A DNA stretch of 64,000 nt from Chloroflexus sp. Y-396-1 (lineage in GTDB: Bacteria > Chloroflexota > Chloroflexia > Chloroflexales > Chloroflexaceae): NCBI RefSeq assembly GCF_000516515.1, contig NZ_KI911784.1, positions 4,316,633-4,380,632 on the forward strand. Reading direction: 5' to 3'. Below the pieces are notes generated by a model, which saw only the letters and a list, made by a program, of their open reading frames with translations, had not been told where the DNA came from and did no database searches. This document shows positions 28,022 through 47,300 of this stretch, one piece after another. Within the stretch, counting starts at the first letter, position 1, and every line of letters starts with the position of its first letter. A program made the translations under genes and the position numbers.

Positions 28022-28320
28022 ACGTTCCTCCTTGGATATTCAAACCAGCAGATGTCTGTACCGCAAGCAGGGGAGGAACGATTGCAATGAGTGCTCAGGT
28101 TAGATCATCACGATCTTAAACGTATATCCCGGTAAAAAGTTTCAGCGAGTTTATATAACTTGAATAGACGGAACAGCATAGTGATGAATCGATGAAAAGT
28201 CCCTGGGCGACTCTGGCAATTGCTGCGGTCGTCGTCAGAGGAGAGAAGTGGGTACAGACGAAAGAAGTGAGAGTACTCCTCGACTGTGTGTGGACGTTGT
28301 TGCCTCATGCTCTACCAGCG

Positions 28321-28533: not shown

Positions 28534-31500
28534 ATGAAACGAGCTGCGAACAAAGCCGAACGACTCCTACAAATCGAACAGTTACTGCTTGCTCATCCTG
28601 AAGGGTTGACGCAGGCCGAACTAGCGCGTCGTCTAGGTGTAGACCGATCCACCATATTACGCAATCTCGCTGATGCACCTAAGCATATTTATGAAGAACC
28701 AGATGGACGGCTCAAAATTGACCGACGCGCCGACCTGATCAACGTGCGGTTGAACCTGCATGAGGCACTGGCGGTGCACCTGGCGGCGCGCCTGCTGGCA
28801 ACCCGTATGGATCGCCAGAATCGGCATGCAGCCGCTGCGCTGCGCAAATTGGGGCACGCGATAGAACGCTGGGCAGCGCGTCTTAGCCAGCACGTGTTGC
28901 AGGCGGCAGATGTGATGGATGACGCAGCGCGACGTGATGATCCGGTATATCTCAGCGTCCTGGAATGCCTAACCGAAGCCTGGGCAAATGAGCGTAAAGT
29001 GCGCATCTGGCATCAACCTGAAACCGGCGAGGAGGTGCTGGAATACCTGCTCAGTCCGTACTTCATTGAACCGTATGCTATCGGACAAACGACCCACATC
29101 ATCGGGAAGGCACGCCTTCTGGAAGGGCGGGGATGGAGCGTCGAGAAGATGCGTACTTTCAAGATCGAACGCATTCGCCGTGCCGAGCTAACCACTGAAG
29201 CCTATCGGATACCTGACGACTTTGACCCACGCATCTATCTGGCCGATGCGTGGGGCATCTGGACTTCAGAGAAGGATCCGGTGGAAGTTACGCTGCGGTT
29301 CAGCTCGCGTGTAGCTCGACGAGTGCAGGAAAGCCGCTGGCACCGTTCCGAGCGCACTGAGCCACAACCCGACGGATCACTGGTATGGCGGGCAAAGATC
29401 GCTGAGCCGAAAGAGATGCTGCCTTGGATCCGTGGCTGGGGCGCTGATGTGGAAGTACTGGCGCCACCGTGGCTACGCAAGACGCTGGAAGCGGAGGTGA
29501 AGAAGATGGCGAGGGTGTATGGGGTGTGCGAGATGAAGTTGCAGGATGCTCTGATTGCGCATCGACGCGAATGCGATGGTGAAGAACAAGCGTTGGTTGA
29601 TCATCTGAAGGGAACCGCAGAACTGGCGAAGCGTTTTGCCGGAAAAATAGGATTACCGGAACTTGGAGAAGTCATGGGATTAGCACATGACTTCGGAAAA
29701 GCCAGTAAGGAGTTTCAGGATTATCTGAAGTCTGCTACAGGGTTGAAAAATCCAGATGAAGATGACTATATAGATTATGAGTCGCGGAAGGGAAAAATAG
29801 ATCACTCTACAGCAGGTGCACAGCTGGTATATGAGAAATGCAGCCATTTAGGCGAGAAAGGCAAGTTCCTTGCGCAATTTCTGGCTCTAATAATAGCGTC
29901 GCACCACTCCGGACTGATCGATTGTCTGACACCCGCAGGTGAGGATAACTTCGGCCGACGTATCAACAAGGAAGATAGCGCAACGCACTTATCCGAAGCC
30001 AGGGGTAAGTTGTCTGAGATCGAAGATGATATTGATAAGATTCTTACGCCGGATGTGGTAAAACACTTCGTGCAAAAACTTCAAAGCCTAGAAGAATCGA
30101 ATGACTCACGAGAGACCATTGCTTTCAAACTCGGTCTTCTAGCTCGTTTTCTGCTTAGTTGCCTGCTAGATGCGGATCGCCTGAACACTGCTGACTTCGA
30201 GTTTCCTGAAAACAGTGTAATCCGTAGTTATGGCAACTATGTATCCTGGGATATGCTGATTGAGCGACTGGAGAAAACATTTAATGAATTTGCACAGGCA
30301 GTCGCACAAACGAAGGAAGGTAGCCAGGCGCGGGAAGTATATCAACTGCGATCACAGGTGGCGCGGGCATGCCGTGAAGCAGCTACGAAACCAAAGGGCA
30401 TTTACCAACTGACTGTACCGACTGGCGGTGGCAAGACTCTAGCAAGTCTACGCTTTGCGCTACACCATGCAAAGCATCACGGGATGGACAGGGTTTTTTA
30501 CGTGGCGCCATACATTACGATTATTGACCAGAATGCTGACACCCTGCGAACAATTCTTGAGCCTGAAAGTGAACGCGGTCGTGTCGTACTCGAACACCAC
30601 TCCAATTTTGTTCCAGAAGAAGATACGCATCGTCGTCATAGCCTGCTGGCGGAAAACTGGGATGCGCCGATTGTATGCACCACTCAGGTCCAATTCTTGG
30701 AGGCCTTGTTCGGTGCAGGCACGCGCGATACTCGTCGCATGCATCAACTGGCAAAAGCGGTGATTATCTTAGATGAGGTGCAGACAGTTCCAATTAGAAT
30801 CGTCCATATGCTGAACGTGGCTCTGCGTTTTTTAGCGCATAGTTGTGGCTCAACGGTTGTCCTTTGCACGGCTACACAGCCGCCGCTGGATCGACTACCG
30901 GACAATCCATACCGTTCGCTTATTGTTAAGCAGGAACAACGAATCATCCCGAACGAAGTGGAACTGTTCAAGAGCATGCAGCGCGTCGAGGTTCACTATG
31001 CACGTAAAGATGGAGGAATGACGAATGATGAAATCGTCGATCTTGCCGGACGGGCACTGGATTCGGAGGGCAGTGTTCTGATCGTGGTCAATACGCGAGC
31101 GATGGCGCGAACATTGTATGAACAAATCAAAGTCAGGCGTCTGGCGCCAACATATCATCTGAGCACCAATATGTGCCCTGCACACCGAATGGATGTGCTG
31201 AATACCATCAAGGAAAAGTTAGCGGCAAAAGAACCTGTTATCTGCGTGAGTACGCAACTTATCGAGGCAGGTGTAGATATTGATTTCGGCGCAGTTATTC
31301 GCTCGCTCGCAGGGTTGGACTCGGTCGCGCAGTCAGCCGGACGCTGCAACCGCCATGGATTACGTGCGACACCAGGAAAAGTTTGGATTGTCAATCCACA
31401 GGAAGAGGATATCGACCAGCTTCTCGACATTAAGATCGGTCGAGATCAGGCGCAAAGAGTTCTTAGTGAGTTCAAATCCGGGAACGACTTTATCGGATTA

Positions 31501-32004
31501 GAAGCAATCACTACCTATTACAGGTATTACTATTCTTCCAGGAAAGATGAAATGGACTATCTCGTTCGTTCGAGCTCAGCGGTTGGGAGGGATGATACAC
31601 TGTTCAGATTGCTGTCAACAAACGAGCTTTCGGTGGCATCATACCGTTCGAGTCGCGGGGTGAATCCACCGCTCCTCTTGAATCAGTCATTCCAATCCGC
31701 CGCTAGAGAGTTTTGCGTGATTGATTCGCCCACAATCGGGGTCATCGTGCCGTATGGTAATGAGGGCGACACGATTATTAATGCACTATGTAGCGCATCA
31801 GAAATTAACAACCGAGTGAAACTGCTTAGACAGGCTCAGAGATTTTCGGTAAGTTTATTTCAACATCAATTCGAAAAATTACGTCAATCTGGTGCTATCT
31901 ATGAAACGGAAGCAGGGATCTGCTATCTGGATAAGCGATATTATAGTGAGGAGTTTGGCTGGAGTTATGAGCCGGTTAACGGCATGGATGCGCTCATTGT
32001 ATAA
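28534..32004 (+). CDS. cas3: HTH-WYL regulator fused to Cas3 helicase-nuclease (type I-C)
   Basis: 1156 residues in one uninterrupted frame from an ATG with GGAGGAACA. Residues 1-60: winged HTH ([21 protein letters not shown]). About 147-330: WYL domain plus WCX-like extension ([32 protein letters not shown]). From about 345: HD nuclease with H356 (LVDHLKG), H385-D386 (LAHDFGKAS) and HH (ASHHSG), then SF2 helicase with Walker A PTGGGKT (629-635), DEVQ (747-750) and [10 protein letters not shown] near 932, then the Cas3 C-terminal domain. Cas3 unwinds and degrades Cascade-marked target DNA. An in-frame ATG at residue 334 (29533), right at the junction, could yield free Cas3 of 823 residues. 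The regulator part looks GC-richer than the Cas3 part. Confidence 0.95.
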
Positions 32005-32015
32005 GGAGGGTCTTC

Positions 32016-32744
32016 ATGGATCATCGAAACAGTGTGACGTTCAAGGTATGGGGAAGATATGCCCTGTTCACCGATCCGCTCACTCGCATTGGCGGGGAAA
32101 AATACTCATACCAGGTTCCCACGTATGAGGCGTTGAAGGGGATATTAAGCTCGGTCTACTGGAAGCCGACTATTGTCTGGATCATTGACAAAGTGCGGGT
32201 CATGAAGCCTATCCGCACGCAGCCACGTAGCGTAAAGCCCCTCAAGTATCACGCGAGTGGCAACGATCTCGCAATCTACACCTATCTTGCCGATGTCGAG
32301 TATCAGGTTCAGGCGCATTTCGAGTGGAATAAGAATCGTCCCGATTTGGAACATGATCGCAACGAACATAAGCATCATTCCGTGGCCAGGCGAATGATAG
32401 AGCGCGGTGGCAGGCGAGATATATTTCTCGGTACACGCGAATGTCAGGGATATGTTGAACCGTGCGAGTTTGGCGAAGGGGAAGGATTCTATGACAACTA
32501 CGGCGAGTTGTCGCTTGGCGTTATGTTTCACGGCTTTGACTACCCTGATGAGTACAAACCTGGTGAATTTTGGGCGCGGTTCTGGCGCGCAACCATGAAG
32601 GATGGAATCATCACTTTTCCAAGGCCAGATGATCAGAACAAAATCCTGCGCAGATTTGTGCGTCCGATGAATGCTAAACCACCTGCTACGGTGGGATTGC
32701 AAGAGAAAAACTTGCTGGAAGGCGATGAAAAAGGGAGGCAGTAA
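32016..32744 (+). CDS. cas5c: Cas5c (Cas5d), crRNA-processing endoribonuclease of type I-C
   Basis: 242 residues, starting 11 nt after cas3 behind AAGGAGGG. Characteristic Cas5 N-terminus ([18 protein letters not shown]). In type I-C this protein replaces Cas6: it cuts the repeat RNA at the 3' base of the hairpin to leave an 11-nt 5' handle and stays in the Cascade complex. Y48 and the K119-H120 pair (NEHKHHS) sit where the catalytic Tyr, Lys and His of characterised Cas5d proteins are expected. The operon position between cas3 and cas8c is typical. Hairpins resembling its RNA substrate occur at the 5' ends of cas4, cas1 and cas2 in the same operon. Confidence 0.95.
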
Positions 32745-32745
32745 G

Positions 32746-34689
32746 ATGAACTGGATGCAGAGCCTGTATGAGACGTATGAACAGTGTGCCAAGAGAGGAC
32801 TCGTCGGCTACGTTTCCGGTACGAAGCGACCGTTGCTACCGATCTGTCATATCACCATCCAGGCGCATATCGAGGTCGTCATTGACGGCTGTGGTAACTT
32901 TCGTCGCGCCCAGTTGGTTTCAAAAGACGATGCGGTGACGATCATACCTGCAACAGAATCATCCGCCAGTCGCAGCGGTAGCAAACCAGAATGTCATCCA
33001 CTCTGCGATAAATTGCAGTACCTGGCGGGAGATTTTGTCCAGTACGGCGGGAAGGTGACTTCTGGTTTTCAGAGCAATCCTGCGGAGCCGCATCAAAACT
33101 TCGTAACGTTGCTTTCAGATTGGCAGTCCAAACGTCCACATCCAAAAGTTTCAGCGATTCTCAAGTACATCAAAAAAAAGACACTCATGACCAATCTAGT
33201 GAACGCGAACATCTTACTGGTCGATTGTCATGGGCAATTACTTACAAAAGATAACGTTGAACCAGAGAAACGTCGTGGAACTATCTTTGATGTATTGAAT
33301 GATCAGGGTGACGCGGTCGTGCGATGGGTTGTAGAGATACCAGGATATACTGAAAGTCGCGTTTGGCGTGATACGACAGTATGGGACAGTTGGATCGACT
33401 ATTACCTGAATCACAGATCAGGAACAAGCGAAATCTGTTTCGTGATCGGAGAAAGGCAGAGGTTGACCAACAATCACCCAAAATATATTCGCCGTGAAGG
33501 AGACAATGCCAAACTAATCTCATCCAATGATGCCCAAGGTTTTACCTTTCGCGGACGATTTATCACCGACGAGCAGGCTTGCAGCGTCAGTTTAGAAGCG
33601 TCGCATAAAGCACATTACGCACTAATGTGGTTGATCGACCGACAGGGGTACCGTGACGGTGATCTGGCGATTGTTGCCTGGGCAATCTCGGGCGCGACAG
33701 TGACAGTGCCACAACCAACTGATGACCCGATTGCCACTCTCTTCGGCGATCTCCCATCTGATGACAAGAGTATTGACACTGCTCAGGACGTCGCTATTCG
33801 CCTGAAGAAGAAAATCGCTGGCTATCGCCAGGAGATTGGTGATCGAACGGACGTCGTTGTGATTGGGGTTGACTCGGCGACGCCAGGGCGATTGGCGGTT
33901 ATCTATTATCGCACCTTGAAAGGTTCAGATTTTCTTGATCGCATCGAAACATGGCATGACACCTGCGCCTGGCGACACACCTATCGGGTGATTGAAGAAC
34001 GCGATACAAACGGGAAACTTTACAGGCGTAGGATTCCATTTATTGGCGCACCTGCGCCGGCAGACATTGCTGAGGCGGCGTATGGTCGTCGTCTTGATGA
34101 CAGATTGAAGCAGGCAACGATTAAGCGTCTGCTTCCCTGCATTGTGGATGGTCAACCGTTACCGCGTGATCTGGTTGAGTCAGCGGTCAGGCGGGCTTCC
34201 AACCCGGTCGGTTTGAGCGATGACCAGAGGGAGAAAGTCCTTACCATCGCCTGTGCACTCTACCGAAAATATATGTATGGAAAGGAGCAATACGACATGG
34301 CGCTCGATGAAACCAGGAGAACGAGGGATTATCTCTACGGTCGTTTGTTGGCGATTGCTGATGTTATTGAAGAGCGAGCACTCTATAAAGCAGAGCAAAA
34401 TCGTCCAACAAACGCAATCCGCTATATGCAGCAATTTTCACAGCGCCCCTTCCGCACATGGAAGCAAATTCACGATCTGCTCATGCCTTATCTCATGCGT
34501 CTGGGCGGTAGAGCCTACTACTACAAGAACCTGATTGCAGAGGTTGAGAGCATGTTTACACCTGAAGACTTTGTGAGTACAAGATCGCTCAGCGGCGAGT
34601 ATTTGCTCGGTTTCTACTGTCAGCGGCAGAAACTGCTGGAAAAACGGGCTGATGACAGGGAAGATGATAATGATGGCACATCCATCTAA
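32746..34689 (+). CDS. cas8c: Cas8c (Csd1), large subunit of type I-C Cascade
   Basis: 647 residues from the ATG at 32746, one base after the cas5c stop and behind GGGAGGCAG; a longer frame from 32671 overlaps cas5c and is rejected. The N-terminal MQSLYETYEQC and internal EIPGYTESRVWRDTTVWDSW segments fit Csd1. Cas8c recognises the PAM and recruits Cas3; an internal start in family members also gives a small subunit (Cas11c), which should map to the C-terminal third here, although I cannot point to the exact start. Length is within the usual 550-650 range. Confidence 0.94.
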   Translation: MNWMQSLYETYEQCAKRGLVGYVSGTKRPLLPICHITIQAHIEVVIDGCGNFRRAQLVSKDDAVTIIPATESSASRSGSKPECHPLCDKLQYLAGDFVQYGGKVTSGFQSNPAEPHQNFVTLLSDWQSKRPHPKVSAILKYIKKKTLMTNLVNANILLVDCHGQLLTKDNVEPEKRRGTIFDVLNDQGDAVVRWVVEIPGYTESRVWRDTTVWDSWIDYYLNHRSGTSEICFVIGERQRLTNNHPKYIRREGDNAKLISSNDAQGFTFRGRFITDEQACSVSLEASHKAHYALMWLIDRQGYRDGDLAIVAWAISGATVTVPQPTDDPIATLFGDLPSDDKSIDTAQDVAIRLKKKIAGYRQEIGDRTDVVVIGVDSATPGRLAVIYYRTLKGSDFLDRIETWHDTCAWRHTYRVIEERDTNGKLYRRRIPFIGAPAPADIAEAAYGRRLDDRLKQATIKRLLPCIVDGQPLPRDLVESAVRRASNPVGLSDDQREKVLTIACALYRKYMYGKEQYDMALDETRRTRDYLYGRLLAIADVIEERALYKAEQNRPTNAIRYMQQFSQRPFRTWKQIHDLLMPYLMRLGGRAYYYKNLIAEVESMFTPEDFVSTRSLSGEYLLGFYCQRQKLLEKRADDREDDNDGTSI

Positions 34690-34724
34690 ATTGTACACAT
34701 AGCTAAATGCGAGGAGGAACTACC

Positions 34725-35699
34725 ATGACAACAACACTCTCGAAAAAGATCGACTTCGCCGTCATCCTGTGTGTCAGGAATGCCAACCCGAATGGAGATC
34801 CACTCAACGGAAATCGCCCTCGCACCACCTATGAAGGGCTTGGTGAGATTTCCGATGTCGCGATTAAGCGCAAGATTCGCAATCGCGTGATGGAACTGGC
34901 AAAAGAGATAGAAAGGATCAAGGAGGAAGAAAGAACAGAGGCCCAGAAGCAGGCTTACGGACGGCTCAAGGGTGTAGAGCATCCAATATTCGTTCAATCT
35001 GATGATAATCGGAACGATGAATATACCAGTCTACGTGAGCGTGCCGAGGCGTATCTCAAGGATTTCATGAATGACAGATCGGCGTATCAGAAGAAAGCCT
35101 GCGAAATCTGGTTTGATGTCCGTGCCTTTGGGCAGGTGTTTCCTTTCAAGGGGAAGGGAAAAGGCAAGAAGGGCGATAAGAGTAATGAAGGTGAAGAGAG
35201 CGATGGCGTCTCGATTGGGATTCGCGGTCCGGTATCGATCCATCCCGCCTTCTCGGTTGTCCCTGTTCTCGACCGCGTTTCCAGCATTCAGATTACGAAA
35301 AGCGTGAGCAACGAACCTGGTGAAAAGCGCGGTTCTGATACGATGGGCATGAAGCATCGCGTTGATCACGGCGTGTACATCTTCTATGGCAGCATTAACC
35401 CGCAACTTGCGAGTAAAACCGGCTTCTCAGACGATGATGCAGCAGTTATCAAGGAGGCATTGCGGACGCTGTTCCGTAATGACGCTTCCTCTGCCCGTCC
35501 TGAGGGTAGCATGGAAGTTTACAGAGTCTACTGGTGGGAGCACAACAGCCCGAATGGACAGTATTCCTCGGCGAAAGTACATCGTTCGCTGAGAGTTCGG
35601 GTTAGGGATGGGATTGAAGATCCGAAGAGTATTGACGACTACGTGATCGAGCTTCAAGACCTCGACGGTTTGAAGCCCGAAGTTATTGAGGGTGAATAG
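34725..35699 (+). CDS. cas7c: Cas7c (Csd2), backbone subunit of type I-C Cascade
   Basis: 324 residues from the ATG at 34725, behind GAGGAGGA, 35 nt after cas8c. Csd2 signature at the N-terminus (FAVILCVRNANPNGDP, then GNRPRTTYEGLGEISDVAIKR split by the DPLN loop) and late SNEPG...DTMGMKHRVDHGVY. The protein coats the crRNA spacer in the Cascade filament. An unusual low-complexity lysine/glutamate insert (KGKGKGKKGDKSNEGEE) lies near residue 145 just before the conserved IRGPVSIHPAFS segment. Confidence 0.95.
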   Translation: MTTTLSKKIDFAVILCVRNANPNGDPLNGNRPRTTYEGLGEISDVAIKRKIRNRVMELAKEIERIKEEERTEAQKQAYGRLKGVEHPIFVQSDDNRNDEYTSLRERAEAYLKDFMNDRSAYQKKACEIWFDVRAFGQVFPFKGKGKGKKGDKSNEGEESDGVSIGIRGPVSIHPAFSVVPVLDRVSSIQITKSVSNEPGEKRGSDTMGMKHRVDHGVYIFYGSINPQLASKTGFSDDDAAVIKEALRTLFRNDASSARPEGSMEVYRVYWWEHNSPNGQYSSAKVHRSLRVRVRDGIEDPKSIDDYVIELQDLDGLKPEVIEGE

Positions 35700-35922
35700 G
35701 CGGTTTTGAATGTTTGATGACGTTGCCTTTCGTTACAGAAGGGGTGGAATTAGTAATTTACGAGGTAGTGGTCGATATAACAATTGGCTGCGGAGCGCAG
35801 ATTAGAGTTCAAGCCCTGGCCGGATAACCGCGAAGGCTAATAGCGCTGATAGAACTACTCCGTCGGAGGAGAAGAGAGCGCCCTTCGTTTTCGGTCGCTC
35901 TCTTCTCCAAAAACTATGTCAT
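35700..35922 (+). promoter_or_regulatory. Gap between interference and adaptation genes with a strong hairpin
   Basis: A 13-bp perfect stem GGAGAAGAGAGCG (35868-35880) / CGCTCTCTTCTCC (35896-35908) with a 15-nt loop lies 40 nt before cas4. No T-tract follows it, so it is more likely an RNA-processing or attenuation element than a plain terminator. A 31-codon frame (35710-35805, MFDDVAFRYRR...) has no Shine-Dalgarno and is not annotated as a gene. Confidence 0.65.
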
Positions 35923-35955
35923 GTCATCTCCCTCACCGGAGGTGCAGAATGAAAC
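35923..35955 (+). repeat. CRISPR-repeat-like hairpin at the cas4 start
   Basis: A 33-nt segment, the same length as the array repeat, matching it at about 21 of 33 positions. It begins GTC, keeps CTCCC at 6-10 and GG.GG at 16-20, and ends TGAAAC. A 7-bp stem forms in the register of the true repeat (positions 3-9 with 16-22). Pair 4-21 changed from G-C to A-T on both sides. The cas4 ribosome site (GGAGGT) is in the 3' arm and the ATG overlaps the handle. Confidence 0.5.
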
Positions 35956-36644
35956 ATGACACAACCAACAACCCTATGACCCGCGAATACACACCAGACG
36001 AACTACTGCCCCTTTCCGGCATCCAGCACTTTCTCTTCTGCCGCCGCCAGTGGGCATTGATTCACATCGAGATGCAGTGGCAGGACAATGCACTGACGGT
36101 AGAAGGCAAACAGTTGCACGAACGGGTCGATGATCCATTCTTTGTGGAAACGCGCCGCGATGTAATCATTTCCCGTTCAGTTCCGGTTGCGTCGTACACG
36201 CTTGGCCTTTCAGGCATTTGCGATGTGGTAGAGTTCACCAGCAGCACGGAGGGCATCCGATTGCCGGGACGCGAAGGATTCTATCGGCCTACACCCATTG
36301 AGTACAAGCGTGGTCATCCCAAACGCGATCCGGTCGATGAAGCTCAACTATGCGCGCAGGCGATATGTCTTGAGGAAATGCTGGCAATCGATATTCCATT
36401 TGGCTACCTCTACTACGGGGAAACGCGCCGCCGTGAGCCTGTGACGTTCACCAGAGAGTTACGTCAACTGGTTTACCAGGCAGCCACCGAAATGCATGCC
36501 TACATGGCGCGTGGCTATACACCCCGCGTAAAAGTAAGTAAGGCATGTCGTTCTTGCTCACTAGCAGCTATCTGTCTTCCAAATCTTCAGGAAAAAACTT
36601 CTTCTGTTAAGACGTACATTCGCCAACAGATCGAACAAGCCTGA
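35949..36644 (+). CDS. cas4: Cas4 exonuclease of the adaptation module
   Basis: 231 residues from the ATG at 35949, behind CCGGAGGTG. Cas4 is a RecB-like nuclease that trims prespacers and sets PAM and orientation in type I-C. Visible: H57 (KQLHERV), D92 (GICDVVEF), E118 and K120 (PIEYKRGHPK), and the four iron-sulfur cysteines C31 (FLFCRRQ), C200, C203 and C209 (ACRSCSLAAIC). All key residues are present, so it should be active. The start region is folded into a CRISPR-repeat-like hairpin. Confidence 0.95.
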   Translation: MKHDTTNNPMTREYTPDELLPLSGIQHFLFCRRQWALIHIEMQWQDNALTVEGKQLHERVDDPFFVETRRDVIISRSVPVASYTLGLSGICDVVEFTSSTEGIRLPGREGFYRPTPIEYKRGHPKRDPVDEAQLCAQAICLEEMLAIDIPFGYLYYGETRRREPVTFTRELRQLVYQAATEMHAYMARGYTPRVKVSKACRSCSLAAICLPNLQEKTSSVKTYIRQQIEQA

Positions 36645-36653: not shown

Positions 36654-36686
36654 GTCGCTTCTCTCACAGGAGGCAGAAATGGAAAC
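36654..36686 (+). repeat. CRISPR-repeat-like hairpin upstream of cas1
   Basis: A 33-nt segment matching the array repeat at about 20 of 33 positions: it begins GTCGC, keeps GG.GGC at 16-21 and ends GAAAC. It forms a 6-bp stem in the repeat register (positions 4-9 with 16-21, two G-U wobbles). It is also clearly related to the segment at the cas4 start (shared TCTC.CTCAC.GGAGG, CAGAA, ATG, AAAC), so one may be a duplicate of the other. Confidence 0.45.
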
Positions 36687-36718: not shown

Positions 36719-37750
36719 GTGAAACGACTAAATAATACGCTTTATGTTACTACACCCGATGCCTATCTCGCACTCGATGGGGAAACCATCTTTATCAGAA
36801 AAGACAAAAATACATCGACCCATTTACCTCTCCACAACCTGGAAAACATTGTTTGTTTCAACTATCATGGGGTCAGTCCAGCCTTAATGCGCGCCTGTGT
36901 TGAACGCAACATAGGGTTAACATTTCTTGATGCCAACGGACGCTTTCAAGCACGGGTCAGCGGTAAGACACGTGGCAACGTGCTGTTGCGCAAAAAACAA
37001 TACCGCATCTCAGAAGATCGTGAATTGCGCGCATCGATTGCCATTGCATTCGTGCAGGGAAAAGTTTATAACTGTCGCAAAGTGCTTGAACGTGCGCTAC
37101 GCGATCATCCGCTTTTGATCGACGTCGAAGCCGTCAGGAATGCATCGGCGTCACTCAAGGAAGCGCTCACGTCCATTTCCAACTGCAACAGCGTAGAAGC
37201 GCTGCTAGCGGTTGAAGGTAACGCTGCCAGCGTTTATTTTGGCGTCTTCGACCACCTCATCTTGCATCAAAAAGATGAGTTTCGCTTTGAGCAGCGATCA
37301 CGCCGACCGCCGCGCAACAATATGAATGCGCTTCTCTCGTTCCTGTACACGCTGCTGACGAACGAAGCGGTCTCGGCGTTAGAAACAGTCGGTCTCGACC
37401 CATACGTCGGCTTTTTGCACTCTGATCGACCAGGTCGGCCATCGCTAGCTCTTGATCTGATCGAAGAGTTACGGCCAATTTTTGCCGACAGATTAGCCTT
37501 ATCCCTTGTGAATCGTAAGCAAATAACAGCAAAAGGATTTACTGCGAAAGAGAGTGGAGGAGTAATTATGGATGAAGATACTCGCAAGCTCGTCATCAAT
37601 GCATGGCAGGAACGGAAGAAGCAAGACATCGTGCATCCATTCTTAAAGGAAAGAATCCCGTTCGGTCTTATCCCGCATGTACAGGCAATGCTACTGGCAC
37701 GGCATTTGCGAGGTGATCTGGATGCGTATCCGCCATTTTTCTGGAACTGA
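36719..37750 (+). CDS. cas1: Cas1 integrase
   Basis: 343 residues from a GTG at 36719, behind AGGAGG. It has the Cas1 beta-sheet N-terminal domain and an alpha-helical catalytic domain with E166 (VEGNAAS), H234 (GFLHSDRPGR) and D246/E249 (ALDLIEEL), the metal-binding set needed for spacer integration. With Cas2 it inserts new spacers at the leader end of the array just downstream. A GTG start reached via the upstream mini-ORF suggests deliberately limited expression. Confidence 0.96.
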   Translation: MKRLNNTLYVTTPDAYLALDGETIFIRKDKNTSTHLPLHNLENIVCFNYHGVSPALMRACVERNIGLTFLDANGRFQARVSGKTRGNVLLRKKQYRISEDRELRASIAIAFVQGKVYNCRKVLERALRDHPLLIDVEAVRNASASLKEALTSISNCNSVEALLAVEGNAASVYFGVFDHLILHQKDEFRFEQRSRRPPRNNMNALLSFLYTLLTNEAVSALETVGLDPYVGFLHSDRPGRPSLALDLIEELRPIFADRLALSLVNRKQITAKGFTAKESGGVIMDEDTRKLVINAWQERKKQDIVHPFLKERIPFGLIPHVQAMLLARHLRGDLDAYPPFFWN

Positions 37751-37779
37751 CACAAGAAAGGAATGCTGAGCTATCACTG

Positions 37780-37812
37780 GTTGCCTCCCGCGAGAGAGGC
37801 ATGGATCAAAAC
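37780..37812 (+). repeat. Solitary degenerate CRISPR repeat between cas1 and cas2
   Basis: 33 nt starting GTTGCCTCCCGCGAG and ending GGATCAAAAC. Compared with the array repeat it matches 26 of 33 positions without gaps; all seven differences are transitions (positions 3, 12, 16, 18, 22, 28, 29). Stem pair 3-22 changed from C-G to T-A on both sides and 7-18 from T-G to T-A, while 9-16 is now a mismatch. There is no second repeat next to it. It lies on the same strand as the cas genes, 39 nt before the cas2 start, so Cas5c could cut the mRNA here or release a crRNA-like RNA. Confidence 0.85.
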
Positions 37813-37851
37813 AGCGGATATATAACCGAGTTATCACCTAGAAGGACGACT

Positions 37852-38142
37852 ATGCTAGTACTCATTACATACGATGTAAACACAGAAACAGAGATGGGCA
37901 AACGACGCCTACAAAAAGTTGCCAGGATATGTCAGAATTACGGGCAACGAGTGCAGAAGTCTGTATTTGAGTGTATCATTGATGTAGCACAACTCCGGCA
38001 ATTACAAGCACAACTAGAACGCATCATTGACACTGAAACAGACAGCATTCGTTACTACTACCTTGGGAAAGAATGGCGACATCGGGTACAACACATTGGC
38101 GCCAATACTGCTCTTGATATAGAGGGGACAATCATCATGTAA
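37852..38142 (+). CDS. cas2: Cas2
   Basis: 96 residues from the ATG at 37852 (MLVLITYDV with D8, the conserved ferredoxin-fold aspartate), behind AGAAGGAC. An in-frame ATG at 37801, inside the solitary repeat, would add 17 residues that are not part of the Cas2 fold; the shorter start is preferred. Cas2 forms the core dimer of the Cas1-Cas2 integrase. The CRISPR leader follows directly. Confidence 0.95.
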   Translation: MLVLITYDVNTETEMGKRRLQKVARICQNYGQRVQKSVFECIIDVAQLRQLQAQLERIIDTETDSIRYYYLGKEWRHRVQHIGANTALDIEGTIIM

Positions 38143-38147
38143 TCACT

Positions 38148-38186
38148 GCGAACCTGGAGTGCACATAAAAGTGCATGGAGGTTCGC
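38148..38186 (+). terminator. Hairpin just after cas2
   Basis: Stem GCGAACCT (38148-38155) with AGGTTCGC (38179-38186), with inner pairing GTGCAC/GTGCAT around an ATAAAA loop. It begins 6 nt after the cas2 stop. There is no T-tract, so the terminator role is tentative; it could separate the cas mRNA from the leader promoter. Confidence 0.5.
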
Positions 38187-38316
38187 ATTCCCGAAAGTAC
38201 ATTAACAACTACATATGTGAACGTAGAGAATATCTCATATTAAATTGAATACCAATGATCAGGAAATAAAGTACAACATCTAGGGTTGGTGTAATTTTTA
38301 ACCACAAGATATTGCG
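38187..38316 (+). promoter_or_regulatory. CRISPR leader
   Basis: About 130 nt of AT-rich sequence (for example CTCATATTAAATTGAATACC and GTGTAATTTTTAACCACAAG) directly before the first repeat on the cas2 side. It should hold the pre-crRNA promoter and the Cas1-Cas2 integration signals. The conservation of the first repeats and decay of the last repeat agree with this end being the growing end. Confidence 0.75.
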
Positions 38317-41300
38317 GTCGCCTCCCGTGAGGGGGGCGTGGATTGAAACCGAAGGGGGTAGTATGACGATTGGTGACCCGTTGGTCGCCTCCCGTGAGGG
38401 GGGCGTGGATTGAAACCGGTTTGTGCAGGTGGTAGGCCGGTACGGTGGTGGGTCGCCTCCCGTGAGGGGGGCGTGGATTGAAACGGCCTGGCGTGCACCG
38501 AGCGCGAGGATCCGCCCGTGTCGCCTCCCGTGAGGGGGGCGTGGATTGAAACGGAGTAGTAGACGAGGTGAGATGCTGAGCGATGAGGTCGCCTCCCGTG
38601 AGGGGGGCGTGGATTGAAACCGCGAGGTCGTTTGGGTGCTCGCGATGATCGGAGTCGCCTCCCGTGAGGGGGGCGTGGATTGAAACGTTGTTTTATGCGT
38701 CGGCGTATCGGGTTGTTACTGGTCGCCTCCCGTGAGGGGGGCGTGGATTGAAACTTCGGGCCAACCCCCCTCATCGCAAGAGGGGGGGTGTCGCCTCCCG
38801 TGAGGGGGGCGTGGATTGAAACTTGAAGATGGGCCGGTAGTCGTGGTAGTGGTGGGTCGCCTCCCGTGAGGGGGGCGTGGATTGAAACTGGCGATCTTGC
38901 TGCTGGCGTGGATTGCCGGCAGCGCGTCGCCTCCCGTGAGGGGGGCGTGGATTGAAACGTTGCGGGGTCGTTATGGGGGAGGGAAAACATCGCTGTCGCC
39001 TCCCGTGAGGGGGGCGTGGATTGAAACAGGCGTGCGTTGGGCATACCGTTGTGGTGGTATGGTCGCCTCCCGTGAGGGGGGCGTGGATTGAAACACGATC
39101 GTGATGGCCGTGAACTTCAGGCGTGCGTCGCCTCCCGTGAGGGGGGCGTGGATTGAAACGGATCCGCCCGTCGCCGTCACCGCAGGCAACCCACGTCGCC
39201 TCCCGTGAGGGGGGCGTGGATTGAAACGGATCCGCCCGTCGCCGTCACCGCAGGCAACCCGTCGCCTCCCGTGAGGGGGGCGTGGATTGAAACGTACTGC
39301 GTCTCAGGATCACCAGACGCACCCTCGTCGCCTCCCGTGAGGGGGGCGTGGATTGAAACCGCAACCGAGATAGGCGTAGGGAAAAGAACTGGGTCGCCTC
39401 CCGTGAGGGGGGCGTGGATTGAAACGTACTGCGTCTCAGGATCACCAGACGCACCCTCGTCGCCTCCCGTGAGGGGGGCGTGGATTGAAACCTTGCACGG
39501 GCTGGCGTCTGTCAAGGTCTTGCAAGTCGCCTCCCGTGAGGGGGGCGTGGATTGAAACGTTGTTTTATGCTTCGGCGTATCGGGTTTTGGCTGGTCGCCT
39601 CCCGTGAGGGGGGCGTGGATTGAAACATCGAAGCACTTGAAAGATGAGCTTGCGTACTTGTCGCCTCCCGTGAGGGGGGCGTGGATTGAAACGTTGACGG
39701 CGTGGTGCACATGGTCGGCTGGAGCGGGTCGCCTCCCGTGAGGGGGGCGTGGATTGAAACGTTGGCGGTGGATATCCCTCTCCCAGGCTTGGGGTCGCCT
39801 CCCGTGAGGGGGGCGTGGATTGAAACTCATTGCAGGTGCGGCATTCCTTATCCGCACATTGTCGCCTCCCGTGAGGGGGGCGTGGATTGAAACTTTCCAA
39901 CGTGCGTCACACATCACACGTACCCGGTCGCCTCCCGTGAGGGGGGCGTGGATTGAAACAGTCTTGGGTGTTGCGGGGTTGCGGGAATGCTCCTGTCGCC
40001 TCCCGTGAGGGGGGCGTGGATTGAAACTTGAAGATGGGCCGGTAGTCGTGGTAGTGGTGCAGGTCGCCTCCCGTGAGGGGGGCGTGGATTGAAACCGGTT
40101 TGTGCAGGTGGTAGGCCGGTACGGTGGTGGTCGCCTCCCGTGAGGGGGGCGTGGATTGAAACGTTGACGGCGTGGTGCACATGGTCGGCTGGAGCGGGTC
40201 GCCTCCCGTGAGGGGGGCGTGGATTGAAACGTTGGCGGTGGATATCCCTCTCCCAGGCTTGGGGTCGCCTCCCGTGAGGGGGGCGTGGATTGAAACGCCT
40301 CTCGCCGTATATTACGGCTATTGTCGGTGTCGCCTCCCGTGAGGGGGGCGTGGATTGAAACGGATATACCCCGATAACGGCGCGTCTGGTGATCCTGAGT
40401 CGCCTCCCGTGAGGGGGGCGTGGATTGAAACTCCGAACTGGGGAACCCAGGGTACGTAAGCGTGATGTCGCCTCCCGTGAGGGGGGCGTGGATTGAAACG
40501 TGTTATATCGAAGGGGGTAGTATGACGATCGGGTCGCCTCCCGTGAGGGGGGCGTGGATTGAAACGGATATACCCCGATGACGGTGCGTCTGGTGATCCT
40601 GTCGCCTCCCGTGAGGGGGGCGTGGATTGAAACGTGTTATATCGAAGGGGGTAGTATGACGATCGGGGTCGCCTCCCGTGAGGGGGGCGTGGATTGAAAC
40701 GGTCGTGGGTGTTACGAGGTTGTGGAAGTGCACCTCGTCGCCTCCCGTGAGGGGGGCGTGGATTGAAACGCGGATTGTTGGTCTACATTGGTGGATATAC
40801 CACGTCGCCTCCCGTGAGGGGGGCGTGGATTGAAACGCCGGTGGTCGAAGTGTCTGATCCGTCCGGTGTGTCGCCTCCCGTGAGGGGGGCGTGGATTGAA
40901 ACGCAACATACGCCATAAGCTCCCTTGTTCCACCCCGTCGCCTCCCGTGAGGGGGGCGTGGATTGAAACGGGAACGACTGAACATGACGCGAGAGGGGGA
41001 TAACGTCGCCTCCCGTGAGGGGGGCGTGGATTGAAACTCGTATAATCGGGTTGCATTGGTGGATATACCAGTCGCCTCCCGTGAGGGGGGCGTGGATTGA
41101 AACACTGTTAACGTCCCGTCATGGGTTACGCGGATAGAGTCGCCTCCCGTGAGGGGGGCGTGGATTGAAACTTGGGAGTTGTGGGGCTGCGGCAATGCTC
41201 CTCCGAGTCGCCTCCCGTGAGGGGGGCGTGGATTGAAACTCGTATAATCGGGTTGCATTGGTGGATATACCAGTCGCCTCCCGTGAGGGGGGCGTGGATT

Positions 41301-44300
41301 GAAACTCGTACTTGTATGCGCCGAAGGTGGTCTTTATTAGTCGCCTCCCGTGAGGGGGGCGTGGATTGAAACACTGTTAACGTCCCGTCATGGGTTACGC
41401 GGATAGGTCGCCTCCCGTGAGGGGGGCGTGGATTGAAACCCTGGCCGACGTCGGTCGGTTTTAGTGTTGTATGGTCGCCTCCCGTGAGGGGGGCGTGGAT
41501 TGAAACTACGGGGTACTGGTGGTGGTTAGACCCGACGTCGTCGCCTCCCGTGAGGGGGGCGTGGATTGAAACGATGCCTCTTGACGGTGCCGGTGTTGGC
41601 GCTTTGGGTCGCCTCCCGTGAGGGGGGCGTGGATTGAAACTCTTTGGGTTGAGGTTAAGACGTGTAGCCACCCAGGTCGCCTCCCGTGAGGGGGGCGTGG
41701 ATTGAAACGCATTTCTGTGGGTTGTTTTTGTGTTGTTCCGGTCGCCTCCCGTGAGGGGGGCGTGGATTGAAACACGACCGGTAGCACCAACGGCACATTC
41801 GCACACACCCGTCGCCTCCCGTGAGGGGGGCGTGGATTGAAACGATGCCTCTTGACGGTGCCGGTGTTGGCGCTTTGGGTCGCCTCCCGTGAGGGGGGCG
41901 TGGATTGAAACTCTTTGGGTTGAGGTTAAGACGTGTAGCCACCCAGGTCGCCTCCCGTGAGGGGGGCGTGGATTGAAACGCATTTCTGTGGGTTGTTTTT
42001 GTGTTGTTCCGGTCGCCTCCCGTGAGGGGGGCGTGGATTGAAACGCACACACCCAGGCAATCTGGCCAGACTTGGCGTCGCCTCCCGTGAGGGGGGCGTG
42101 GATTGAAACGCGAGACGATGAGGCCATACGACCTTAGCCGCCGAGTCGCCTCCCGTGAGGGGGGCGTGGATTGAAACACGATGGCGTTACGCATCAAACC
42201 GCGTGAAACGGGTCGCCTCCCGTGAGGGGGGCGTGGATTGAAACGGGCTACGGGCCGTTCGGCGTCTCGATCCCGTCGTCGCCTCCCGTGAGGGGGGCGT
42301 GGATTGAAACGGGCTACGGGCCGTTCGGCGTCTCGATCCCGTCGTGTCGCCTCCCGTGAGGGGGGCGTGGATTGAAACTCTCGCTGCGAATCGGCGGCGA
42401 ACTCGATCAACGTCGCCTCCCGTGAGGGGGGCGTGGATTGAAACTCACTTGCCCGTCGCCGCCTCAATCGAGCGCGGAGTCGCCTCCCGTGAGGGGGGCG
42501 TGGATTGAAACCGTGTTGGTGGTACGCATTGGAAACTAGGGACGGCGTCGCCTCCCGTGAGGGGGGCGTGGATTGAAACGAGCGCGTCGTCGTAGAGCGA
42601 CCTGATAACGGCGAGTCGCCTCCCGTGAGGGGGGCGTGGATTGAAACGAGGTATCGGGAAATTGGGATCGGCGTGGTCGGCTCTGTCGCCTCCCGTGAGG
42701 GGGGCGTGGATTGAAACAAAACTCATAATCATCCCCTCCGTAACGCCAGCCGTCGCCTCCCGTGAGGGGGGCGTGGATTGAAACCCTTAAACCTGGCCCA
42801 CTCATCTACCGTACTCCCGTCGCCTCCCGTGAGGGGGGCGTGGATTGAAACAGTCTTGGGTGTTGCGGGGTTGTGGAAGTGCTCGTCGCCTCCCGTGAGG
42901 GGGGCGTGGATTGAAACATCAGGATATATCCGAACCGACGTCCCCTGGGCAGTCGCCTCCCGTGAGGGGGGCGTGGATTGAAACGTCTTGGATGTCGGGG
43001 AGCGAAAGAAATGTAAGGGTCGCCTCCCGTGAGGGGGGCGTGGATTGAAACCGGTTTGTGCAGGTGGTAGGCCGGTACGGTGGTGTCGCCTCCCGTGAGG
43101 GGGGCGTGGATTGAAACACGATCGTGATGGTCGTGAACTTCCGCAAGGCACGTCGCCTCCCGTGAGGGGGGCGTGGATTGAAACCCCCCACCTAACCGCC
43201 CCCTTAACCACACAACCCTGTCGCCTCCCGTGAGGGGGGCGTGGATTGAAACCATCCGATCATATATACCGTCCCGTCCACATAGGTCGCCTCCCGTGAG
43301 GGGGGCGTGGATTGAAACCACGCGAGCCAGAGTACATATAGCCCAACCAACAGGTCGCCTCCCGTGAGGGGGGCGTGGATTGAAACCTCATCCGCACGTT
43401 ACGAAATGGGTAACCCGCCATGGTCGCCTCCCGTGAGGGGGGCGTGGATTGAAACCATAATGATGTTGTGATATGTTATTGTGGTGATGTCGCCTCCCGT
43501 GAGGGGGGCGTGGATTGAAACTACGAATTGGCTGCGGAGTGCGACGTACGTTCGCGTCGCCTCCCGTGAGGGGGGCGTGGATTGAAACTCCACCCCCCAG
43601 CTCGTTGCTGGGGGTGCTTGCATGTCGCCTCCCGTGAGGGGGGCGTGGATTGAAACCATGTCCGTCGTGGATATACCGCGACGGCTACGGGTCGCCTCCC
43701 GTGAGGGGGGCGTGGATTGAAACGCAGGATGGTACGTATCAAAAGGAATATGATCAACGGTCGCCTCCCGTGAGGGGGGCGTGGATTGAAACGTGGGTGG
43801 AATCTCTGAGTGAGGGATGATCGGCAGTCGCCTCCCGTGAGGGGGGCGTGGATTGAAACTGTTGCCATCGCGACGGGGTCGGGCTACGGGCCGGTCGCCT
43901 CCCGTGAGGGGGGCGTGGATTGAAACGACGGAGCCCGTTAACCAGATCATCGCGCCACCTGTCGCCTCCCGTGAGGGGGGCGTGGATTGAAACCCCCCAT
44001 CAACCATCCCACCATCACCCGTTTCCCCCGGTCGCCTCCCGTGAGGGGGGCGTGGATTGAAACCCCGCGGAACGATCCGCAAGACAGCGGTTGCGCGTCG
44101 CCTCCCGTGAGGGGGGCGTGGATTGAAACCCCCCGCAACCATCCCCCCAGCACCCGTTGCCCCGTCGCCTCCCGTGAGGGGGGCGTGGATTGAAACAGTC
44201 GATGCTCGATGAGGCCGCAGCGCTGCTCGAGTCGCCTCCCGTGAGGGGGGCGTGGATTGAAACTTCGTGGGCGGCGGTATGAGGTGTTGTTCGAATACGT

Positions 44301-47300
44301 CGCCTCCCGTGAGGGGGGCGTGGATTGAAACCCCCCCTCAACCTTCCCCCCCGCAACCTTCCCCGTCGCCTCCCGTGAGGGGGGCGTGGATTGAAACCCA
44401 CCCCATGTGGGGGATGCGCCGCACCGCGTTGCGTCGCCTCCCGTGAGGGGGGCGTGGATTGAAACTGATCCTGTCCCTCTTTCCGGGATTGGCGCAGAGG
44501 TCGCCTCCCGTGAGGGGGGCGTGGATTGAAACCGCGCAGATGAGGCCATACGCTAGCCGCCGAGGTCGCCTCCCGTGAGGGGGGCGTGGATTGAAACACC
44601 CTCGCATTGCAGTTGAAGGCAAGAGAAACGGGTCGCCTCCCGTGAGGGGGGCGTGGATTGAAACACCGGCGACGGGTGGATCATCGGCTCCGTCTCCGTG
44701 TCGCCTCCCGTGAGGGGGGCGTGGATTGAAACGTTATTCGCACCGTCATCCGAACTTTTCTCGGGTCGCCTCCCGTGAGGGGGGCGTGGATTGAAACCCC
44801 CGCGCAACCATCCCCGTGCAACCGTCCGCAAGTCGCCTCCCGTGAGGGGGGCGTGGATTGAAACATGACTCGGGGGGTTGTAAAGCACTACGATGAGGTC
44901 GCCTCCCGTGAGGGGGGCGTGGATTGAAACTCGATGCAGGCCTCGTATATCCACGTAGTACGGTCGCCTCCCGTGAGGGGGGCGTGGATTGAAACTTGAT
45001 CGACGAGGCGTGGGAAATATTCTCACCCGAGTCGCCTCCCGTGAGGGGGGCGTGGATTGAAACTGGTGATCATCCTGATCCTCACCCTCACCACCCCGTC
45101 GCCTCCCGTGAGGGGGGCGTGGATTGAAACGGGTTGACTGGGCGGGCACACAACTGCGGGTGTCGTCGCCTCCCGTGAGGGGGGCGTGGATTGAAACGCT
45201 ACAAACGGTAGAAAGACTAGGTGTTGAGGTGGTCGCCTCCCGTGAGGGGGGCGTGGATTGAAACATGGGCGGCTAGCGTCGTATGGCCTCGTCTGCGCGC
45301 AAGTCGCCTCCCGTGAGGGGGGCGTGGATTGAAACCTGAAGATGGGCCGGTAGTCGTGGTAGTGGTGGCGTCGCCTCCCGTGAGGGGGGCGTGGATTGAA
45401 ACTTCCTCAAGCCCGCGTCTGCGCCACTCCGCCGTGTCGCCTCCCGTGAGGGGGGCGTGGATTGAAACCCCAACCGCGTGTTTGCCCTCTACGACACCGC
45501 CGTCGCCTCCCGTGAGGGGGGCGTGGATTGAAACTTGTCATAAGAGCAGTTTGGCGAACGATTGCAGGGTCGCCTCCCGTGAGGGGGGCGTGGATTGAAA
45601 CTGGTTGGGTAAGTTGTTACGGGGAGGTGTAAGCGTGTCGCCTCCCGTGAGGGGGGCGTGGATTGAAACCGCAGAGCACTCGGCGTCCCCGTCTGGTGGT
45701 ACGGTCGCCTCCCGTGAGGGGGGCGTGGATTGAAACTCCACCCCCAGCTCGTTGCTGGGGGTGTTTTGCGTCGCCTCCCGTGAGGGGGGCGTGGATTGAA
45801 ACCCAACTTACGTGGGGAATGCGCCGCACCGCGTGGCGGTCGCCTCCCGTGAGGGGGGCGTGGATTGAAACGAAGATACGCCAACTCGTCTTTCAGGTGC
45901 TTAGGTCGCCTCCCGTGAGGGGGGCGTGGATTGAAACACACTATTACACTCGACATTTTTAGGGAATTGGGTCGCCTCCCGTGAGGGGGGCGTGGATTGA
46001 AACGGACGACCGCCCGCCCGTAAACGTCACCCGCCACGTCGCCTCCCGTGAGGGGGGCGTGGATTGAAACACGGTACGCGGATGCATCACACTGAGCGAT
46101 GGTGTCGCCTCCCGTGAGGGGGGCGTGGATTGAAACACTACAAACGGTAGATACACTTGATACAACGATGAGTCGCCTCCCGTGAGGGGGGCGTGGATTG
46201 AAACTTTATCCAACTCTCTTTGGGGGTTGTGTCAGACGGTCGCCTCCCGTGAGGGGGGCGTGGATTGAAACCGTTCTCGACGTCGGCGAGCGAAAGAAAT
46301 GTAAGGTCGCCTCCCGTGAGGGGGGCGTGGATTGAAACCCCGGAGCGGGTATGATCGATAGCATCTACACCGAGTCGCCTCCCGTGAGGGGGGCGTGGAT
46401 TGAAACTATGAACTCGCTGCGGAGTCGGATGTTCGCTCACTCGTCGCCTCCCGTGAGGGGGGCGTGGATTGAAACCGATATCTCAAAACTCATAACTCCC
46501 ACCATCATCGTCGCCTCCCGTGAGGGGGGCGTGGATTGAAACCCCCATCACCCATTGCCCCCGCAACCGTCCCCCGTCGCCTCCCGTGAGGGGGGCGTGG
46601 ATTGAAACGTTTGCGCGGGTATGCGAGGAAAGCATTGCGGAGGTCGCCTCCCGTGAGGGGGGCGTGGATTGAAACCGCGTAGTGTGGCTGCGAGGGAGGT
46701 ACGGGGGAGGGTCGCCTCCCGTGAGGGGGGCGTGGATTGAAACGCGGCGTATGACGATGCAGTCGAGTACGCCCGATGTCGCCTCCCGTGAGGGGGGCGT
46801 GGATTGAAACGCATTGGCGTGCACGGAGCGCGAGAACTCACCGGGTCGCCTCCCGTGAGGGGGGCGTGGATTGAAACCCTACAAGCCATACCATAGCCGT
46901 TACCTCACTTGTCGCCTCCCGTGAGGGGGGCGTGGATTGAAACTTCGGCTACATGAAGGCGTTGCTCGACACACTCGTCGCCTCCCGTGAGGGGGGCGTG
47001 GATTGAAACTCTCATCCGCACCTTGCGCAACGGGTAGCATATGCGTCGCCTCCCGTGAGGGGGGCGTGGATTGAAACACGTTACCATCCTACACTGGGCG
47101 GTGTTTTGGGGTCGCCTCCCGTGAGGGGGGCGTGGATTGAAACTCAAGGTTATCCGTGGTGGTTAGTCGTGTTGTTGTCGCCTCCCGTGAGGGGGGCGTG
47201 GATTGAAACCTCTGCAACTTTTGCGTGGACATGGCGTATAAGTCGCCTCCCGTGAGGGGGGCGTGGATTGAAACAGGTGTTAGGCCGGTACGGTGGTGGC

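What the first reader, a model, noticed from the sequence alone, without database searches (positions are those of the whole stretch)
37780..37812. Isolated CRISPR-repeat copy between cas1 and cas2 with a preserved, covarying hairpin
Seen: an ungapped 33-nt match to the array repeat, 26 of 33 identical, all seven changes transitions, in the cas-sense orientation and without any neighbouring repeat. Within the stem, pair 3-22 changed C-G to T-A on both sides and pair 7-18 went from a wobble to Watson-Crick; one mismatch (9-16) exists. The two-sided change argues that the RNA fold, not just the sequence, has been kept. Known: Cas5c cuts repeat hairpins in RNA, and repeat-like RNAs in cas operons (CreA/CreR type) can repress cas genes. 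Inference: Cas5c may cut the cas mRNA here, or release a crRNA-like RNA whose guide would begin AGCGGATATATAACC and overlap the cas2 ribosome site. This would be an internal feedback on spacer acquisition.
Basis: partly seen in the sequence, partly recalled or inferred. Interest (0 to 1): 0.88.

Follow-up and report, generated by a model that had tools for sequence, protein, structure and literature searches.

The report
Degenerate stray CRISPR repeats between cas genes
A worn copy of the CRISPR repeat sits between two genes of a bacterial immune operon, one of three such copies in that operon; it is real, but nothing shows that its fold is kept by selection, so it is more likely a decaying stray repeat than a working switch.

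Summary
In detail: 37780-37812 matches the 165-copy type I-C array repeat at 26 of 33, seven transitions, cas-sense. It is far above chance. Two more repeat-like 33-mers lie in the next junctions upstream: cas4|cas1 (36654) and cas7|cas4 (35923). By a profile of 32 I-C repeats plus pairing the three score 27.4, 22.4 and 18.2; nothing reached 18 in 20 million simulated positions or in a 2.0 Mb sample of this 4.89 Mb genome.

With seven random transitions, 26% of placements give a two-sided pair change and 64% keep at least 7 of 8 pairs. The three relatives with Cas1 above 80% identity lack the element. Two handle bases invariant in the 32 profiled repeats are changed, and no promoter match precedes it. 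Its would-be guide has a partial TTC-PAM match upstream of cas3 (P about 0.007-0.010 per guide, three tried): a hint only.

Best reading: a degenerating ectopic repeat, one of a set confined, as far as sampled, to the cas operon. Cas5c cutting of cas mRNA, or a CreR-like guide, is not excluded.

The parts
37780..37812 (+). degenerate ectopic I-C repeat between cas1 and cas2 (the finding)
   Evidence: 26/33 to the array repeat; profile+pairs 27.4; CM 20.7 bits, E 0.0038 in 13.3 kb; z 13.1 against shuffled repeats
36654..36686 (+). second repeat-like 33-mer, cas4|cas1 junction; 3' arm holds AGGAGG, followed by ATG
   Evidence: profile+pairs 22.4; 25/33 to the repeat of L045; but only 20/33 to the own repeat, CM 7.6 bits E 4 and z 0.8 in the own-repeat test
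35923..35955 (+). third repeat-like 33-mer, cas7|cas4 junction; 3' arm holds GGAGGTG, followed by ATG
   Evidence: profile+pairs 18.2; 26/33 to the repeat of L045; shared with G158, 2 of 33 differ; but CM 9.0 bits E 1.8 and z 2.0 in the own-repeat test
37766..37778 (+). left copy of an imperfect 13-nt direct repeat flanking the element (CTGAGCTATCACT)
   Evidence: shuffle p 0.002-0.003, found after the fact and in 1 of 8 elements clearly
37826..37838 (+). right copy of that direct repeat (CCGAGTTATCACC)
37813..37846 (+). would-be 34-nt guide after the element; reaches the cas2 Shine-Dalgarno-like AGAAGGA
   Evidence: read; guide tests
28144..28177 (+). best TTC-PAM seed match of that guide in the window (8 of 10 CreA-style positions), upstream of cas3
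28534..32004 (+). cas3 with N-terminal HTH-WYL-WCX extension
32016..32744 (+). cas5c (pre-crRNA endonuclease)
   Evidence: TIGR01876 258 bits; PDB 4f3m and 9w6c alignments
32671..34689 (+). cas8c (ORF as listed; profile match begins at residue 29)
34707..35699 (+). cas7
35916..36644 (+). cas4 (ORF as listed; it contains the third element at its 5' end, the true start is probably 35949 or later)
36719..37750 (+). cas1
   Evidence: TIGR03640 494 bits
37852..38142 (+). cas2
   Evidence: TIGR01573
38317..49346 (+). type I-C array, 165 identical 33-nt repeats, 164 spacers (156 distinct)

Best explanation
The element is an ectopic copy of the locus's own I-C repeat family that came to lie in the cas1|cas2 junction of this lineage and is now drifting away from the repeat. 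It is one of three such copies in the successive junctions cas7|cas4, cas4|cas1 and cas1|cas2. How the copies arrive is inferred, not shown: insertion, or recombination that uses array repeats, in or next to the cas operon. On this reading the hairpin survives because 21% divergence, mostly by C-to-T and G-to-A changes that pass through G.U, leaves most pairs intact anyway; any cutting by Cas5c would be weak and incidental.
For: Real repeat copies. Pair retention and the two-sided change are within chance. No copy in the junctions of the three relatives with Cas1 above 80% identity: G158 (88%), G395 (84% over its matched part), G052 (81%). T28 and G29, invariant in the 32 profiled repeats, are both changed. 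Similar single copies turn up sporadically elsewhere, and some are plainly non-functional or at breaks: L102 cas1|cas2 copy with a ruined stem, L103 perfect repeat inside a broken cas1 3' end, G158 copy exactly where homology to the window's WYL-Cas3 starts, i.e. at a truncation joint. An imperfect 13-nt direct repeat flanks the element like an old target duplication (p about 0.003, post hoc).
Against: Three copies in three consecutive junctions, all cas-sense, and none as good in a 2.0 Mb sample of the same genome look more ordered than random scars. In the 94-locus scan all 8 hits of score 14 or more were on the cas-sense strand, although local copying from a sense array would give that too. 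All seven changes are transitions, a pattern also expected if pairing were kept. The other seven elements tested gave no clear flanking duplication.
Confidence: 0.55

Rival explanations
1. The three junction hairpins are Cas5c cutting or binding sites in the cas mRNA. Cas5c cuts 11 nt before the end of each repeat copy, separating the effector genes from cas4, cas1 and cas2 and lowering or insulating adaptation gene expression, as a feedback on Cas5c and crRNA supply.
For: All three gaps of the adaptation half carry a sense repeat-like hairpin; each keeps 6 or 7 of 7 model pairs; a Cas5c with aligned active-site positions is encoded in the operon; in two of them the 3' arm carries a good Shine-Dalgarno sequence followed by ATG. 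The I-C dev locus of Myxococcus is reported to autoregulate its transcript through Cas8c-Cas7-Cas5 by an unknown mechanism (passage of PMC8616872).
Against: Pair retention is not above chance for any of the three. Junctions cas4|cas1 and cas1|cas2 lack the elements in G158. The cas7|cas4 copy is shared with G158 only within a stretch that is 94-100% identical by recent exchange, so that sharing says little. Single-strand parts are changed in each copy.
Confidence: 0.24
2. The element makes a CreA/CreR-like guide RNA that leads Cascade to partly matching DNA upstream of cas3 and represses the cas operon.
For: The best TTC-PAM seed match of the guide among all TTC sites of the window, 8 of 10 CreA-style positions, is at 28144 in the 512-nt region upstream of cas3; chance for one guide 0.0065-0.0096 by three nulls; 0 of 165 array spacers do as well. 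Ectopic repeats of this sort are described for CreTA (passages of PMC9458426 and PMC8501985) and CreR (passage of PMC13131331).
Against: Three guides were tried, so about 0.02-0.03 overall; the other two reach only 6 and 5. The handle is changed at T28 and G29, while the CreA repeat that gives the handle is said to conserve Cas5-binding bases. No promoter-like match precedes the element and no terminator-like match follows it. The target lies about 180-280 nt upstream of the best promoter-like matches of cas3, nearer the divergent gene. The exact CreA-style pattern TTCAGCGGNTATAT occurs once in the genome, inside an open frame. The two upstream guides of G158 reach only 5 of 10.
Confidence: 0.11
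3. The two neighbouring elements are ordinary Shine-Dalgarno hairpins (pyrimidine arm, GGAGG arm, ATG) that resemble the repeat by convergence; only 37780 is a repeat copy.
For: GGAGGTG and AGGAGG plus ATG lie in the matched part; in the test against the own repeat they are not significant (z 2.0 and 0.8; CM E 1.8 and 4).
Against: Profile alone, without the pair bonus, gives 11.2 and 16.4 bits against a maximum of 8.4 in 2.0 Mb of the same genome, both strands; other cas junctions of 94 loci, which also need Shine-Dalgarno sites, give very few such hits. In G158 the ATG is lost but GTCGTCTCC..TGAAAC is kept.
Confidence: 0.08
4. Chance resemblance of 37780-37812 to the repeat.
For: None found.
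Confidence: 0.01

Closest known systems
CreTA ectopic repeats (CreA guide RNAs beside type I cas genes)
   Same: degenerate ectopic repeat in a cas intergenic region; in Haloarcula hispanica it lies between cas6 and cas8 (passages of PMC9458426 and PMC8501985)
   Different: no toxin RNA, promoter or well-matched target shown here; handle changed; one copy per junction rather than a pair around one spacer
CreR cas-regulating RNAs (reported for I-B, I-E, V-A in the passage seen, PMC13131331)
   Same: repeat-derived element near cas genes with a partial match near the cas promoter region
   Different: inside the operon, no own promoter or terminator match, target upstream of the promoter-like sites, subtype I-C not named in that passage
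Solitary repeat units / Racr (PMC10651486, passages)
   Same: single repeat-like hairpin; a I-C Racr is described there
   Different: those are viral and inhibit Cas proteins; this one is in the cas operon of a chromosome
[quoted passage not shown] 2023, NAR gkad495)
   Same: by its title the same general class; only the reference entry was seen, the paper is not held
   Different: cannot be judged without the text; elements like this one may already be listed there
Myxococcus xanthus dev I-C locus autoregulation (PMC8616872, passage)
   Same: I-C effector proteins reported to damp their own transcript
   Different: mechanism unknown there; no repeat-like element is mentioned in the passage seen

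Membership tests
type I-C CRISPR repeat (ectopic copy) | sequence and length of the I-C repeat beyond chance | tested here: met
   26/33 to own repeat, 27.4 by profile+pairs, 0 of 20 million simulated positions at 18 or more
type I-C CRISPR repeat (ectopic copy) | stem of at least seven pairs | tested here: met
   7 of 8 pairs (6 of the 7 model pairs); no more than chance would keep
type I-C CRISPR repeat (ectopic copy) | invariant 3' handle TTGAAA | tested here: not met
   TCAAAA; T28 and G29 are invariant in the 32 repeats of A2; repeats of the ..GAGTAGAAAT group, left out of A2, have A at 28 but keep G29
Cas5c substrate in cas mRNA | active Cas5c in the same locus | tested here: met
   Cas5c present and the Tyr and Lys-His positions align with 4f3m; activity itself not tested
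Cas5c substrate in cas mRNA | cleavage 11 nt before the end of the repeat copy | not testable with these tools
   needs in vitro cleavage or 5'-end sequencing
Cas5c substrate in cas mRNA | fold kept by selection | tested here: not met
   P 0.55, 0.40 and 0.11 for the three elements; two-sided change 26% by chance
CreA/CreR guide RNA | partial guide match (positions 1-5, 7-11) with PAM near a promoter it controls | tested here: inconclusive
   8 of 10 with TTC at 28144, P 0.0065-0.0096 for one guide, three tried; not at the promoter-like sites
CreA/CreR guide RNA | conserved Cas5-binding handle | tested here: not met
   two of the handle bases changed; handle rule from passages of PMC9458426
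CreA/CreR guide RNA | own promoter | tested here: not met
   no sigma-70-like match on + strand before it; other promoter types are not covered
Racr / solitary repeat unit of a virus | carried by a virus or provirus | tested here: not met
   lies between cas1 and cas2; the element's 17-nt tail found only unrelated places in viral contigs

The most novel reading that the evidence does not exclude
The three junction elements are natural intercistronic Cas5c sites: the CRISPR endonuclease cuts its own operon mRNA at degenerate repeat copies before cas4, cas1 and cas2, so that the supply of free Cas5c sets how much of the adaptation machinery is made.
Probability: 0.18. Interest if true: 0.82.

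Novelty: new member of a known kind. Interest (0 to 1): 0.42.

Why it matters
If the elements work, a CRISPR system would be using its own crRNA-processing enzyme to cut its own message and so tie spacer acquisition to crRNA maturation, which can be tested with one purified protein and three short RNAs. If they are scars, they still show that array repeats keep landing in or beside cas operons (window, G158, L102, L103), including at a joint where a WYL-Cas3 fusion was cut, which bears on how cas modules are shuffled.

Tried and rejected
Covariation as evidence of function: rejected. All six nulls gave 7-26% for a two-sided change and 21-71% for pair retention at least as good.

A fourth repeat-like place at 35722 (201 nt before 35923, close to three array periods): dropped; it scored below the cut-off of 3 in the profile scan of that gap and lies in a small open frame.

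Leader, trailer or spacer origin of the flanks of 37780: no similarity to the own leader, trailer or 164 spacers beyond shuffles. In L102 an 11-nt match between the cas1|cas2 gap and its post-cas2 region was seen (p 0.01), not followed.

Phage or plasmid match for the would-be guide: phage search gave only E 2 and 7; the plasmid search with 37400-38300 found cas1 only. Rfam gave nothing at the element.

Conserved counterpart in viral contigs: Cas1 search found none.

Guides of the two neighbouring elements and of the two G158 copies: no seed match of note.

Limits of the survey. A2 holds 32 repeats; L008 (34 nt) and L011 (offset wrong) of the 34 in A1 were dropped before modelling. The 94 loci include three pairs of the same locus (L039/L118, L057/L116, L016/L124), and many have a Cas5 and Cas7 only about 30% identical to the window's, so not all are I-C in the strict sense. 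Only the part up to the end of cas2 was scanned, and most loci do not reach upstream of cas3. L051 (19.1) is inside cas7 coding sequence and I count it as probable chance. Gene ends were extended from tblastn matches. One search printed too much and was cut; one search replaced it. One search listed 100 of its 113 matches; that the other 13 are 11 array repeats and the 2 copies upstream of cas3 follows from the positions.

Full report
What is there. The window carries a complete type I-C operon on the + strand: cas3, cas5c, cas8c, cas7, cas4, cas1, cas2, followed by an array of 165 identical 33-nt repeats, 38317-49346. The genome is a single 4.89 Mb contig; the nearest named Cas1 relatives are Chloroflexota. 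At 37780-37812, 29 nt after the cas1 stop and 39 nt before the cas2 start, lies a 33-mer that matches the array repeat without gaps at 26 positions; all seven differences are transitions.

Is it more than chance. Yes. On the operon's + strand 2,000 shuffled repeats gave at most 23 matches. A position profile of 32 I-C repeats (alignment A2) plus one point per pair gives 27.4; about 20 million positions of Markov-1 sequence with the operon's composition gave none at 18 or more and 2 at 14 or more. A covariance model of the same repeats gives 20.7 bits, E 0.0038 in 13.3 kb. Across 54 cas junctions of 40-600 nt from the surveyed loci, each compared with its own array repeat, this junction stands first (z 13.1).

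It has company. The same profile finds two more elements in the window outside the array, both on the cas-sense strand and both in the next two junctions upstream: 36654-36686 between cas4 and cas1 (22.4) and 35923-35955 between cas7 and cas4 (18.2). The profile alone, without the pair bonus, gives 16.4 and 11.2; the maximum in 2.0 Mb of the same genome on both strands is 8.4, and with pairs and three loop lengths it is 14.2. These two are closer to repeats with a CTCAC loop, such as that of L045 (25 and 26 of 33), than to the own repeat (20 and 21). Tests against the own repeat or with the covariance model do not single them out (z 0.8 and 2.0; E 4 and 1.8), and both contain a Shine-Dalgarno sequence and an ATG, so their case is weaker than that of 37780.

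Is the fold kept. Not demonstrably. If seven transitions are placed at random on the array repeat, 64% of outcomes keep at least 7 of 8 pairs and 26% contain at least one two-sided pair-preserving change. With the base changes kept as observed the figures are 35% and 25%, and with free substitutions 21% and 13%. From an ancestor with T7-A18, as in the repeats of L040, L045, L062 and L120, they are 37-71% and 7-18%. Against the closest known repeats the retention of pairs has P 0.55, 0.40 and 0.11 for the three elements. The seven transitions fit drift through G.U as well as they fit selection.

Is it conserved. Not in what could be seen. Of 82 genomes of the order, 9 have a Cas1 at E 1e-80 or better, and only G158, G052 and G395 besides the window's own exceed 80% identity. 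Their cas1|cas2 gaps hold no repeat-like sequence: 234 nt of unrelated sequence, 17 nt and 9 nt. G158 does have the cas7|cas4 element, two of 33 bases different, but within a stretch (about 32001-36200) that is mostly 93-100% identical between the two genomes, followed by 48-87% further on; the exchange is recent and the sharing says little.

Stray repeats elsewhere. In 94 loci (91 distinct), 663 kb up to the end of cas2 and both strands, eight places score 14 or more: the window's three, G158 cas7|cas4, L102 cas1|cas2 (31.0, stem ruined), L103 in the 3' end of a broken cas1 (21.6, a perfect copy of its own repeat), L107 upstream of cas3 (14.8) and L051 inside the end of cas7 (19.1, probably chance). 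All eight are cas-sense. In L102 the copy starts 29 nt after the cas1 stop, the same distance as here; with two cases this may be coincidence. In G158 two more copies lie upstream of cas3, one of them exactly where homology to the window's WYL-Cas3 begins. With a 17-nt tail pattern and one mismatch the whole G158 genome has 113 matches, all on one strand, which the array and these two copies account for.

Could it be a guide. The 34 nt after the element were compared with all TTC-preceded sites of the window. The best CreA-style seed (8 of 10) is at 28144, in the 512 nt upstream of cas3; three nulls put this at 0.0065-0.0096 for one guide, and none of 165 array spacers does as well. Against this: three guides were tried, the target lies 180-280 nt upstream of the best promoter-like matches, the handle has lost T28 and G29, and there is no promoter-like match before the element. 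L107 shows for comparison what a likely working element looks like: new stem with all seven model pairs possible by eye, handle GTGAGTAGAAAT kept, a terminator-like hairpin and T-run after about 30 nt, and a guide that matches an upstream-of-cas3 site at all 10 seed positions, though in AT-rich DNA, with CTT and not TTC before it, and without a computed null.

Verdict. The sequence is a genuine ectopic I-C repeat, and the operon holds a small set of them. The simplest account that fits the lost handle bases, the chance-level pair retention, the absence in relatives and the sporadic, partly broken copies elsewhere is a degenerating stray repeat. The orderly placement, one per junction, all sense and none elsewhere in the sampled genome, keeps the Cas5c-site reading alive at about one in four or five. 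Shown: identity, position, strand, rarity. Inferred: how it arrived, whether it is transcribed as such, whether Cas5c touches it.

What was read. PMC10651486, PMC9458426, PMC8501985, PMC3727216, PMC5965380, PMC13131331, PMC8616872 and PMC10910872: passages only. Searches for print on such elements in I-C operons brought no paper that, from the listings and passages seen, describes repeat copies between cas1 and cas2; Shmakov et al. 2023, the likeliest place, is not held.

Noticed in passing
window 28534-32004: cas3 is fused at its N-terminus to an HTH_11, WYL and WCX transcription regulator (residues 10-326); similar fusions in L114, L120, L123 and, more distantly, L119.
   Followed up: partly
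L129 (G158), reverse strand, about 8000-8345: two ectopic repeats upstream of cas3, one at the joint where the WYL-Cas3 homology to the window starts (residue 210), close after a TTGAAA-TATATT promoter-like stretch read by eye.
   Followed up: partly
L107 40-72 and after: repeat-like hairpin with a changed stem and kept handle upstream of cas3 in an Oscillospiraceae MAG, followed by a terminator-like hairpin; its guide matches 10 of 10 seed positions at 167 on the other strand: a candidate I-C CreR.
   Followed up: partly
L103 6966-6998: a perfect copy of the locus's own repeat lies inside the 3' end of a broken cas1 in a Lachnoclostridium MAG, just before cas2; assembly error not excluded.
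   Followed up: partly
L102 639-670: degenerate repeat between cas1 and cas2 of a Clostridia MAG, 29 nt after the cas1 stop as in the window, stem ruined.
   Followed up: partly
window about 32001-36200: effector genes and the start of cas4 are mostly 93-100% identical at the DNA level to G158, then identity drops to 48-87%: a recent exchange with its edge inside cas4.
   Followed up: partly
window about 24800-25907: another tandem array with a period of about 76 nt and repeats ending GGTTGAAAC, likely a second CRISPR array of another type.
   Followed up: no
window 28328 and 28425: two palindrome-like stretches around GTTACATG upstream of cas3 (TGTGACGTTACATGTCACA and GTGTTGCGTTACATGCAACAC); the second has a counterpart in G158. 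Possible operators for the WYL regulator.
   Followed up: no
window about 35860-35908: long inverted repeat (GGAGAAGAGAGCG..CGCTCTCTTCTCC) between cas7 and cas4, identical in G158.
   Followed up: no
window 38317-49346: 8 spacers of the array occur twice (164 spacers, 156 distinct) although all repeats are identical.
   Followed up: no
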